Positions 45,641 through 54,903 of a stretch of 64,000 nt of DNA are shown piece by piece. Below the pieces are notes generated by a model that saw nothing but the letters and a program-made list of their open reading frames with translations, was not told the DNA's origin and searched no databases. This stretch comes from Kordiimonadales bacterium IMCC3096. GTDB taxonomy: Bacteria > Pseudomonadota > Alphaproteobacteria > Minwuiales > Minwuiaceae. Position 1 is the first letter of the stretch. The number at the start of each line of letters is the position of its first letter. Location of the stretch: NCBI GenBank assembly GCA_016865035.1, contig CP018227.1:1954001-2018000 (forward strand), given 5' to 3'. The position numbers and the translations under genes are program-made.

Positions 45641-45716
45641 CCTGTTCCGTCCCTCTCCCCCACCCGGCCACCCACGGGATCATCCTGAATGGGTGGCCGG
45701 GCGGGGAACAGGGACG
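45641..45716. repeat. Dispersed palindromic repeat, copy 1
   Basis: CCCGGCCACCCA (45663-45674) and TGGGTGGCCGGG (45690-45701) are a perfect 12-bp inner stem around a 15-nt loop. The outer arms (CTGTTCCGTCCCTCTCCCCC against CGGGGAACAGGGACG) are degraded by a small deletion. It shares arms and loop with copies at 50284 and 54823. Confidence 0.85.
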
Positions 45717-45767: not shown

Positions 45768-46796
45768 ATGGCGCGGATTGTCTATCTCGATGCGTTTCCG
45801 GCGGAGAATGCCCTGCCCATTCTGGCTGAACGGCCGGAACATGAAGTGATCCGCATCGACCGCCACGCGCCGTTTGCCGAGAGTTTCGCCACGCTGGCCT
45901 CCGCGCACGCGTTCCAGTGCGTTCCGGCACGGGACGAGGTGCCGGAACCGCTGCGCGTCGATGCCGCCTTCCTGGCCCGGGCGCCGGAACTGCTGGTGGT
46001 GTCCTCCGGCGGCTCGGGTGTCGATACCTTCGACCTCGACGCCTGCACGGCGGCAGGGGTGCTGGTGGTCAATCAGGCGGGCGGCAATGCGGAGGCGGTG
46101 GCGGAACATGCGCTCGGCATGATGCTGCTGCTGATGAAGCGGGTGCCGGAGGCGGACCGCGCCCTGCGCCGGGGCTGGAATGGCGCGCGTACCGATTTCC
46201 GGGGCGCGGACCTGTTGGGCAAGACGGTCGGCATCATCGGCCTCGGTCACATCGGGCGCAGGCTGGCCAGCATCTGCCGCCACGCCTTCGACTGCGAGGT
46301 TCTGGCATACGACCCCTATCTGGATGCCGATGAGATGGCCCGCCGTGACGCGCGGAAGGTCGGCTTCGAGGAGGTGCTGTCGGGCTCCGACGTGGTCAGC
46401 ATCCATTGCCCGCTGAGCGCCGAGACCCGGAGGATGTTCGACGCGGCGGCCATCGGCATGATGAAGCCCGGCGCCCGCCTGATTGCCACCGCGCGCGGCT
46501 TCATCCATGACGAGGACGCGCTGTATCAGGCGCTGAAGTCCGGTCATCTGGCCGGTGCCGGTCTCGACGTCTGGGATGCCGAGCCCCCCACCGCCGACCA
46601 CCCGCTGCTCTCCCTCGACAACGTCATCACCAGCCCCCACACCGCAGGCGTCACCCGCGACAGCCGCGAACGCATGGCCCGCTACGCCGCGACGCAACTG
46701 ATCGACATCTTCGACGGCAAGGCCCCGGTGCGCCCGGTGAACACAGCCGTGCTGCCTGTCTGGCAGAAGAGGGTGCAAGGGTTCCTGAAGGGGTAG
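45768..46796 (+). CDS. D-2-hydroxyacid dehydrogenase (NAD-dependent)
   Basis: A 342-residue D-isomer-specific dehydrogenase, related to phosphoglycerate dehydrogenase and CtBP. The NAD loop is GKTVGIIGLGHIGRRLASICRH; catalytic residues are Arg in TARGFIHDEDAL, Glu in DVWDAEPPTADHPLL and His in SPHTAGVTRDSRER. GGGGAG precedes the ATG. It could act on glyoxylate, hydroxypyruvate or similar 2-keto acids; which one is unknown. It stands alone with a repeat on each side. Confidence 0.92.
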   Translation: MARIVYLDAFPAENALPILAERPEHEVIRIDRHAPFAESFATLASAHAFQCVPARDEVPEPLRVDAAFLARAPELLVVSSGGSGVDTFDLDACTAAGVLVVNQAGGNAEAVAEHALGMMLLLMKRVPEADRALRRGWNGARTDFRGADLLGKTVGIIGLGHIGRRLASICRHAFDCEVLAYDPYLDADEMARRDARKVGFEEVLSGSDVVSIHCPLSAETRRMFDAAAIGMMKPGARLIATARGFIHDEDALYQALKSGHLAGAGLDVWDAEPPTADHPLLSLDNVITSPHTAGVTRDSRERMARYAATQLIDIFDGKAPVRPVNTAVLPVWQKRVQGFLKG

Positions 46797-46812: not shown

Positions 46813-46965
46813 CGGGCTTGACCCGCCGCGAGCCTGGTCTCCGACGCCTGCGCGGCACCATGGGTACCCGGGTCAAGCCCGGGCACGGCGTGGTGGAAGG
46901 TGGAGCCGGAAGTTGGTCATCTCAACAAGACCCACCCACGACGCTCGCGGACTTGATCCGCGAGC
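46813..46965. repeat. REP-like mosaic with a CTTGA core
   Basis: CGGGCTTGACCCG (46813-46825) and its exact complement CGGGTCAAGCCCG (46869-46881) form a 13-bp inverted repeat around 43 nt. A further hairpin, GCTCGCGGA-CTTGA-TCCGCGAGC (46943-46965), shares the same core. The block fills most of the 202 nt between the convergent dehydrogenase and gshB genes and holds no gene. Confidence 0.75.
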
Positions 46966-46998
46966 CCAGCTTGAGGCGCTGGAGGGACGTGACCCGAC

Positions 46999-48139: not shown

Positions 48140-50239
<2,100 letters not shown>

Positions 50240-50283: not shown

Positions 50284-50368
50284 GCCTGTTCCATCCCTCT
50301 CCCCCTCCCGGCCACCCACGGGAGTATCCCTAATGGGTGGCCGGGAGGGGGAGAGGGATGGAACAGGC
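50284..50368. repeat. Dispersed palindromic repeat, copy 2 (35-bp perfect arms)
   Basis: The arms at 50284-50318 and 50334-50368 are perfectly complementary over 35 bp around a 15-nt loop (CGGGAGTATCCCTAA). The arms are C-rich/G-rich on opposite strands. It lies 44 nt upstream of the fadB-like start and about 65 nt downstream of the MFS stop on the minus strand. Confidence 0.95.
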
Positions 50369-53989: not shown

Positions 53990-54784
53990 TCAGACCCCCC
54001 TGAATGTCGGTGTGCGTTTCTCGACGAAGGCCTTCGCGGCCTCCTTGTGGTCCTCGGTCTCGCCGCTGCGGGTGTGGTGCATCGCCTCCATGTCGAAGCA
54101 GCGGGCCAGGGACTCGGTCATGGCCGCGTTCATGTTGCGCTTCATGTAGGACAGGGCGATCTTCGGCCCGTTGGCGATCTTCTGCGCCAGCGCCATGGTC
54201 TCCGCCTCCAGGTCGGCGTCGGCGACAACGCGGTTGACGATGCCCAGCGCGTGCGCCTCTGCAGCGTTCAGCTTGTCGGCGGTATAGTAAAGCTCCCGGG
54301 CCTTGGCAGTGCCGACCAGATGGGTGAGGAAATAGCTGCCGCCGAAGTCACCCGAATAGCCCACGTTGGCGAACGCGGTGGTGAACTTCAGCGTGTCGGA
54401 GGCCACCCGCATGTCGCATGACAGGGCGATGGACATGCCCGCCCCGGCGACCGGACCACGCACCATTGCAATTGTCGGCTTCGCCATCTCGTGCAGCAGG
54501 CGGGAAACCTCCATGCCGCCGCGCAGCTTCAGCACCTTGGCCTCCAGCGTGTTGTCGGCGAACTCCCGCCCTTCGGCCATCGACTTCACGTCGCCCCCGG
54601 CGCAGAAGCCGCGGCCCGCGCCCGTGATCACGACGCAGCCGATGGAGCGGTCCATGGACAGCCGCTGGCAGTTCTCCACCAGCGCCTCAAGCATTTCCCC
54701 GCTCAGCGCGTTCAGCCGGTCCGGCCGGTTCATTGTCAGGACGGCAACGCCATCCCTTTCCTCGACCAACAGGTGATCGGTCAT
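53990..54784 (-). CDS. Enoyl-CoA hydratase/isomerase family protein
   Basis: A 264-residue crotonase. The oxyanion segment GAGRGFCAGGDVKSMAEG lies at about 59-76 and PVAGAGMSIALSCDMRVAS at about 112-130. A canonical first Glu is not obvious in FTTAFANVGYSGDFGGSYFL, where Asp fills the second acidic position, similar to the gene at 42-839. ATG 54784 follows GGGGAGGAATGAGGAA. It is co-transcribed with the acyl-CoA dehydrogenase (3-nt gap). Confidence 0.92.
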   Translation of the reverse strand: MTDHLLVEERDGVAVLTMNRPDRLNALSGEMLEALVENCQRLSMDRSIGCVVITGAGRGFCAGGDVKSMAEGREFADNTLEAKVLKLRGGMEVSRLLHEMAKPTIAMVRGPVAGAGMSIALSCDMRVASDTLKFTTAFANVGYSGDFGGSYFLTHLVGTAKARELYYTADKLNAAEAHALGIVNRVVADADLEAETMALAQKIANGPKIALSYMKRNMNAAMTESLARCFDMEAMHHTRSGETEDHKEAAKAFVEKRTPTFRGV

Positions 54785-54822: not shown

Positions 54823-54903
54823 CTGTTCCATCCCTCTCCCCCACCCGGCCACCCAACAAGGATACTCACGTGGGTGGCCGGGTGGGGGAGAGGGATGGAA
54901 CAG
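54823..54903. repeat. Dispersed palindromic repeat, copy 3 (33-bp perfect arms)
   Basis: The arms at 54823-54855 and 54871-54903 are perfectly complementary over 33 bp around a 15-nt loop. The loop reads as the reverse complement of the copy-2 loop with three or four changes, so this copy is inverted. It ends 13 nt from the VOC gene stop and 39 nt before the hydratase start on the minus strand. Confidence 0.95.

What the first reader, a model, noticed from the sequence alone, without database searches (positions are those of the whole stretch)
50284..50368. Family of near-perfect palindromes of about 80 nt with a conserved asymmetric loop
Seen: copies at 45641-45716, 50284-50368 and 54823-54903. 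Arms are 33-35 bp and perfect in two copies, and all share C-rich arms and a 15-nt loop; the third is inverted relative to the second. All are intergenic, and two lie within the presumed minus-strand transcripts directly before the start of beta-oxidation genes. Such structures would make very stable RNA hairpins. They resemble REP/MITE elements but no transposase is visible.
Basis: seen in the sequence. Interest (0 to 1): 0.55.

Follow-up and report, generated by a model that had tools for sequence, protein, structure and literature searches.

The report
Flipping palindromic DNA repeats of Alphaproteobacteria
The three hairpins belong to a large family of repeated DNA palindromes scattered between genes in many Alphaproteobacteria; their two arms change together and their central loop is often flipped over between close relatives, yet no gene that moves them was found.

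Summary
The three palindromes exist as described. The same core occurs in Sphingomonadales, Kiloniellales, Acetobacteraceae and Rhodospirillales, 1 to 109 exact-core copies per genome in 19 genomes chosen for having it. The arms covary (233 doubly changed cells against 88 in shuffles) with few G-U pairs. The asymmetric loop ignores transcription (18 with, 13 against) and is flipped at 7 of 23 orthologous sites. Window copy 1 is missing from the two nearest relatives. RAYT (Y1_Tnp), the usual mover of such repeats, is absent from 7 of 7 Minwuia genomes, and the hairpin lies beside 0 of 13 Y1 genes in seven other hairpin-bearing genomes. Best reading: a MITE-like, non-autonomous DNA element whose arms are kept matched and whose loop is inverted by template switching or conversion between copies, and which is spread by an unidentified enzyme. 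No Rfam family and no relevant paper holding the arm sequence was found. A new variant of a known kind.

The parts
45648..45674 (+). copy 1, left arm (element 45641-45716); loop orientation +
   Evidence: no element at the orthologous site of G003, G004 and G007
45675..45689 (+). copy 1, 15-nt loop CGGGATCATCCTGAA
45690..45716 (+). copy 1, right arm (imperfect, 89%)
50284..50318 (+). copy 2, left arm
50319..50333 (+). copy 2, loop CGGGAGTATCCCTAA
50334..50368 (+). copy 2, right arm
   Evidence: no element in G002, G003, G005, G006, outer remnant in G004
54823..54855 (-). copy 3, arm (loop orientation -)
54856..54870 (-). copy 3, loop; on the minus strand CGTGAGTATCCTTGT
   Evidence: loop points the other way in G007 at the same site
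54871..54903 (-). copy 3, arm
   Evidence: site occupied in G003, G007, G004 (loop lost) and G005 (degenerate)
48140..50227 (-). neighbour of copy 2: enoyl-CoA hydratase / 3-hydroxyacyl-CoA dehydrogenase gene (start at 50227 or 50239)
53990..54784 (-). neighbour of copy 3: enoyl-CoA hydratase gene
45768..46796 (+). neighbour of copy 1: 2-hydroxyacid dehydrogenase gene

Best explanation
These are copies of a non-autonomous, MITE-like DNA element of Alphaproteobacteria whose core is a palindrome with arms of about 33-35 bp and an asymmetric loop of about 14-18 nt. SHOWN as patterns: dispersed intergenic copies, absence at some orthologous sites, concerted change of the two arms, a loop that occurs in both orientations at orthologous sites, absence of RAYT in the genus. 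INFERRED: (1) new copies are made by an enzyme acting in trans that recognises the extruded hairpin; (2) at a site, replication template switching and/or conversion between copies writes one arm onto the other and inverts the loop, which keeps the arms matched; (3) copies persist because they sit in non-coding DNA at little cost. No host function is needed.
For: 48 copies in this genome; of 47 with known context none has its centre inside a predicted gene, three touch a predicted gene end by 9-35 nt. The 47 palindromes of score 18 or more in 859 kb (overlaps included) are all this family, 46 by motif and one by eye; ten control regions of 20 kb hold none. The 63 palindromes called in regions of two relatives also fit it; those regions were chosen around copies and one array was called three times. 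Covariation score 0.260 against 0.081 shuffled and at most 0.054 when slid; 39 of 2097 cells are G-U (hand sum). Outer arm 9-mers differ at 0.55 of 9 positions between the two arms of one element but at 2.11 of 9 between orthologous elements (22 clean pairs of 39; 0.64 and 2.10 with misregistered rows kept); in 11 of the 22 pairs each element is internally matched yet the two differ. Loop class is kept at 16 of 23 sites (7.3 by shuffling sites), orientation at 16 of 23 (11.4 by shuffling, P about 0.06). In a Kiloniellales genome the same loop occurs in both orientations relative to asymmetric ends. Template switching is reported to homogenise inverted-repeat arms and invert spacers (PMC8604942, abstract and passages). 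G003, G004 and G007 lack copy 1; G007 has a copy where this genome has none (L310).
Against: No enzyme was found. No clean target-site duplication was seen in Minwuia. Most of the sites that could be compared are occupied in both genomes, so current spread looks slow (the compared regions were chosen around copies and lean that way). An absent element can be loss rather than gain: G004 keeps an outer remnant at the copy-2 site, and this genome seems to hold internally deleted elements at two sites of G007 copies. Template switching and conversion were not separated. That the inner core is shared by all lineages is partly by construction, since I searched for it. The strict loop motif is in only 26 of 103 class-wide copies, a looser one in 44 of 103, so recognition of the loop is a guess.
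Confidence: 0.45

Rival explanations
1. The spreading enzyme is an ordinary TA-inserting DDE transposase (IS630- or IS711-like) that acts on outer terminal inverted repeats; the palindrome is a passenger of a classic MITE.
For: In the Kiloniellales genome the full unit is TA-GAGCGTTTTCCG...hairpin...CGGAAAACGCTC-TA. Class-wide flanks hold inward TAGAG in 26 against outward in 6 of 194 flanks, and TAG[AC]G on both flanks in 9 against 0 outward of 97 elements. IS711 of Brucella duplicates TA of YTAR and has been linked to the palindromic Bru-RS repeats (PMC2266754, passages).
Against: Of the 37 Minwuia copies printed with flanks only the one at 1173503 shows such ends. TAGCG alone shows no inward bias, 17 against 17. 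Mean end-to-end similarity barely exceeds the control (7.9 against 6.8; 12 or more in 6 of 97 against 1.1% of controls). No autonomous element with such ends and a duplication was found in the held loci (about 2.8 Mb with overlaps); a looser scan gave 88 inverted pairs against 129 direct ones, counted slightly differently. Whole genomes were not scanned for such an element.
Confidence: 0.28
2. RNA-level element: the hairpin in the transcript terminates, stabilises or processes mRNA and is kept by selection.
For: All placed copies are intergenic and, in tandem gene pairs, lie a median 28 nt after the upstream stop codon and 68 nt before the next start; very stable fold; the stem is the same in RNA whichever way the loop points.
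Against: Placement follows available intergenic space: 31 tandem, 8 convergent, 8 divergent against 57%, 17% and 27% of intergenic length. No T-run terminator called. G-U pairs are rare. The loop is not aligned with transcription: 18 with, 13 against.
Confidence: 0.14
3. REPIN/REP system moved by a RAYT (Y1 transposase), perhaps lost recently in Minwuia.
For: Inverted pairs and tandem half-units look like REP/BIME arrays; a weak GTTTGTGG lies outside the arms, and GTGG is a known variant of the GTAG tag (PMC3733652, passage). Seven of 17 class genomes with genuine-looking hairpins have Y1_Tnp against 65 of the other 368 (my tally; 6 of 23 pattern hits set aside as chance by eye).
Against: 0 of 7 Minwuia genomes have Y1_Tnp; 10 of the 17 have none; 0 of the 13 Y1 loci of the seven genomes carry the palindrome (four are cut by contig ends; three lone 8-10-nt motif hits in two loci), while two are flanked by different palindromes of their own.
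Confidence: 0.06
4. Chromosome-organisation site used near the replication origin.
For: 17 of 24 exact-core sites lie within 0.5 Mb of a parB gene at 1.77 Mb (23% of the genome); hand count; a parA-like gene beside it by eye.
Against: Of its genus, G002 gives 0 matches and G006 2 on both strands; distribution over the class is patchy, 23 of 385 genomes by exact pattern.
Confidence: 0.06

Closest known systems
REP / BIME / REPIN with RAYT
   Same: short intergenic palindromes in inverted pairs, compensatory changes, tandem half-units (PMC3116915, PMC3733652, passages)
   Different: arms of about 33-35 bp instead of stems of 5-13 or 8-9 bp, no RAYT in the genus, arms near perfect, asymmetric loop that flips
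ERIC and other bacterial MITEs
   Same: about 100-130 bp, intergenic, copy number varies between taxa (PMC10969869, passages)
   Different: different host class; here the palindrome is nearly perfect and the loop flips; sequence relation not tested
Bru-RS1/Bru-RS2 of Brucella
   Same: palindromic repeats of 103-105 bp in an alphaproteobacterium (PMC2267715, table passage); linked to a YTAR-targeting IS (PMC2266754, passages)
   Different: no sequence comparison made here
CIR, Caulobacter CcrM-associated intergenic repeats
   Same: strictly intergenic repeats linked to DNA methylation sites in Caulobacter and other alpha-proteobacteria (PMC10969869, passage and reference title; original paper not held)
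   Different: GANTC lies just outside the arms in part of the Minwuia copies only; sequence not compared
Br-REP1 of Bradyrhizobium
   Same: central stem-loop flanked by two further palindromes, strongly varying copy number (PMC5082802, passages)
   Different: 20-nt palindrome of other sequence

Membership tests
REP (GTAG or CGTC type) | stem of 5-13 bp (GTAG) or 8-9 bp (CGTC) | tested here: not met
   arms mostly 24-38 bp against Table 1 of PMC3733652 (passage)
REP (GTAG or CGTC type) | terminal GTAG or CGTC tag | tested here: inconclusive
   no conserved GTAG or CGTC in 93 Minwuia flanks; weak GTTTGTGG, and GTGG is a known GTAG variant
REPIN | RAYT (Y1_Tnp) in the genome, REPs flanking it | tested here: not met
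   0 of 7 Minwuia genomes; 0 of 13 Y1 loci elsewhere
MITE | small, dispersed, non-coding, intergenic | tested here: met
MITE | terminal inverted repeats with target-site duplication | tested here: inconclusive
   TA-GAG ends in Kiloniellales and some others; one of 37 printed copies in Minwuia
MITE | parent IS with the same ends | tested here: inconclusive
   none in the held loci; whole genomes were not scanned for it
MITE | presence/absence at orthologous sites | tested here: met
CIR | associated CcrM sites (GANTC) | tested here: inconclusive
   17 GANTC in the first 10 nt outside 92 Minwuia flanks, 2.7 expected from intergenic DNA; class-wide 6 against 2.8 expected from all DNA
Bru-RS | sequence similarity to Bru-RS1/2 | not tested
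   no Brucella sequence fetched
Structured RNA (Rfam) | match at gathering score | tested here: not met
   none at the hairpins of the window or in 6 further loci; below threshold mostly microRNA hairpins

The most novel reading that the evidence does not exclude
A class-wide mobile DNA hairpin that is moved through recognition of its extruded single-stranded structure by an enzyme not of the RAYT kind. After landing it is kept matched by self-templated arm copying that also flips the loop, so that perfection of the palindrome is a product of replication and not of selection on RNA.
Probability: 0.22. Interest if true: 0.75.

Novelty: new variant of a known kind. Interest (0 to 1): 0.5.

Why it matters
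Dispersed palindromes without a known mover are an old puzzle. This family has many similar copies, orthologous sites in near relatives, and an asymmetric loop that reports each flip, so it makes arm homogenisation and spacer inversion measurable in natural genomes. Copy number varies strongly between related genomes (0 to about 40 places scored within one genus; up to 109 exact cores elsewhere), which offers a set of genomes in which to look for the unknown mover.

Tried and rejected
RAYT as mover: rejected for Minwuia and unsupported elsewhere. Rfam: no family. Terminator: no call. Replichore bias of the loop: none evident from counts per chromosome part, not formally tested. Autonomous IS with TAGAG-type ends: none in held loci; the one strong pair (L185) encloses a ChaC-like gene (my reading by eye) and a truncated copy. 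Plasmids: two records with partial matches. Viral contigs: 27 stretches match, not examined. Literature: of six 12-15-mers of the arms one 12-mer occurs in three papers on unrelated subjects, the rest in none; the other searches (listings and passages only) gave analogues. That the family is not in print is stated for these searches alone.

Limits. Gene calls are from my own simple finder. G007/G004 regions were chosen around copies, so sharing of sites is overestimated. Orthologous flanks were found for 33 of the 48 copies. One search parsed 28 pairs and left 16 rows unparsed; by eye these include flips (1751927 in G007, 1856749, 2563917) and same-way pairs (for example 4270749, 1435810). One search scores 25 same, 10 flipped, 4 unscored of 39 pairs. 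Its arm 9-mers were misregistered in some rows; one search repeats the count on 22 of 39 pairs with the same result. Alignment A1 holds 60 of the 140 oriented copies that I had (22 of 37 own, 38 of 103 others); I favoured rows whose loop could be oriented, so it overstates loop conservation, and the class-wide rows share the inner arm because the search pattern demanded it.

Full report
OBSERVATION. The three palindromes are real: 35-bp and 33-bp perfect arms and a 27-bp arm at 89%, each with a 15-nt loop. They fold far better than shuffled sequence.

FAMILY SIZE. A search of the window's own genome (4,291,441 bases, one contig) gave 83 matches on both strands, with 40 of 69 candidates scored. 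The exact inner core occurs 24 times, the reversed control 0 times. In 859 kb that I fetched (overlaps included) all 47 palindromes of score 18 or more are this family, 46 by motif and one by eye; one weaker copy makes 48; ten 20-kb control regions hold none. The genus is Minwuia by inference: two contig lengths of relative G007 equal those of Minwuia thermotolerans DHS20C03 records.

DISTRIBUTION. Exact-core counts in 19 genomes picked from those hits range from 1 to 109 (Kiloniellales bin 109, Acetobacteraceae bin 77, Sphingomonas R647 52, S. tagetis 41, Hephaestia caeni 35, Pelagibius litoralis 31). In an even draw over the class 23 of 385 genomes match the exact pattern; six of these look like chance by their loops.

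ANATOMY. The consensus is an outer arm of variable type, then CTCCCCC-N-CCCGGCCACCCA, a loop, and the mirror arm. Over 60 sequences 13 of 35 pairs never vary, 14 have changes on both sides and 94.4% of cells pair. 233 cells are doubly changed against 88 in shuffles, with none of 500 shuffles reaching it, and slid controls collapse. The inner pairs are invariant in part because the search pattern fixed them. 39 of 2097 cells are G-U, and A-T to T-A exchanges are common; this is what DNA-level copying gives and not what stepwise RNA compensation usually gives (inference).

LOOP. In Minwuia the loop is asymmetric with a common motif near AGTATCCT; all 37 copies could be oriented by it or a close variant. 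Class-wide it is looser: the strict motif in 26 of 103 copies, a loose form in 44 of 103. It is read in either direction: 23 plus and 25 minus in this genome; in tandem gene pairs 18 with and 13 against transcription. At orthologous sites in G007 and G004 it points the same way in 25 and the other way in 10 of 39 pairs, 4 unscored. With one pair per site, 23 sites: loop class kept at 16 (7.3 by shuffling), orientation kept at 16 (11.4 by shuffling, P about 0.06), and 4 are flipped with the same class. In the Kiloniellales genome the loop sits both ways relative to asymmetric ends: with both ends visible 15 one way and 2 the other, the first being favoured by the query; among the 9 loci found by pattern alone 2 and 7.

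TURNOVER. Flanks of the pairs are 92.8% identical on average. On 22 clean pairs the outer 9-mers of the two arms of one element differ at 0.55 positions, those of orthologous elements at 2.11; in 11 pairs each element is internally matched yet the two elements differ, in 3 they agree, in 8 at least one element has unmatched arms. So arms tend to change together. Several sites show another loop class and other arms. Copy 1 of the window is absent in G003, G004 and G007; copy 2 is absent in G002, G003, G005 and G006, reduced to a remnant in G004, and its site holds about 3.9 kb of other DNA in G007; copy 3 is present in G003 and G007 (loop the other way in G007), in G004 without a loop and in G005 degenerate. 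G007 has a copy at a site that lacks it here.

PLACEMENT. Of 47 copies with known context none has its centre inside a predicted gene; 31 tandem, 8 convergent, 8 divergent, close to the share of intergenic DNA. Exact-core sites cluster around parB: 17 of 24 within 0.5 Mb (hand count; parA-like gene beside it by eye).

MOVER. Y1_Tnp is absent from this genome and from 7 of 7 Minwuia genomes, one of them 89% complete. In the class it occurs in 72 of 385 genomes; 7 of my 17 hairpin genomes have it, somewhat more than the rest (65 of 368). None of the 13 Y1 loci of those seven carries the palindrome, while two are flanked by palindromes of their own, which shows that the test can see such an association. 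Outer ends of the type TA-GAG..GTTT are seen in several orders, recalling YTAR-targeting IS elements and Bru-RS, but Minwuia copies mostly lack them and no parent IS was found in held loci.

MECHANISM. Template switching between arms homogenises arms and inverts spacers (PMC8604942, abstract and passages); both marks are seen here. Conversion between dispersed copies would also give wholesale replacement. I commit to a MITE-like element with hairpin-directed spread by an unknown enzyme plus self-templated maintenance, at 0.45. The spread is inferred; arm concert and loop flips are shown as patterns, not as a process.

KNOWN KINDS. It works like a REP or MITE. It is not a REP by stem length or by RAYT; the tag is undecided. 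Membership in MITE is met for form and for presence/absence at sites, open for ends and parent. CIR and Bru-RS remain untested by sequence. Rfam has no family; the arm sequence is in no relevant paper of the held library.

Noticed in passing
window 46826-46969: A second dispersed repeat, about 75-81% alike at more than ten other places in this genome and relatives, with CCCGGGTCAAGCCCGGG-type palindromes; looks like a CGTC-type REP (label recalled).
   Followed up: no
Minwuia loci, e.g. 1549862 and 1531063 in own coordinates (L252): Tandem half-units: outer arm that stops after about CCCTCTC, followed by a linker near GGGAGTCTGTTTG and another arm; L185 in Kiloniellales has a half-unit truncated at the matching point.
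   Followed up: partly
G000:C1 around 1.77 Mb: Copies cluster around parB, 17 of 24 exact-core sites within 0.5 Mb.
   Followed up: partly
Minwuia flanks, first 10 nt outside the arms: GANTC sites enriched: 17 against 2.7 expected, though not at one fixed position.
   Followed up: partly
L351 and L355: Y1 transposase genes flanked on both sides by a different palindrome with GGGGACACAATACTTATAT arms.
   Followed up: no
L045, L048, L053 (Sphingomonadales): Some copies are cut by another palindrome with GCAAAGTANTACTTTGC, as if the hairpin were its target.
   Followed up: no
G007:C4:92345-96293: About 3.9 kb of other DNA in G007 at the site of window copy 2.
   Followed up: no
G004:C103 (L347): One site with two copies whose loops point in opposite directions, a stretch of N between them.
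   Followed up: no
CP051228.1 (L144): A record titled Mesoflavibacter carries this otherwise alphaproteobacterial element; the title may be wrong.
   Followed up: no
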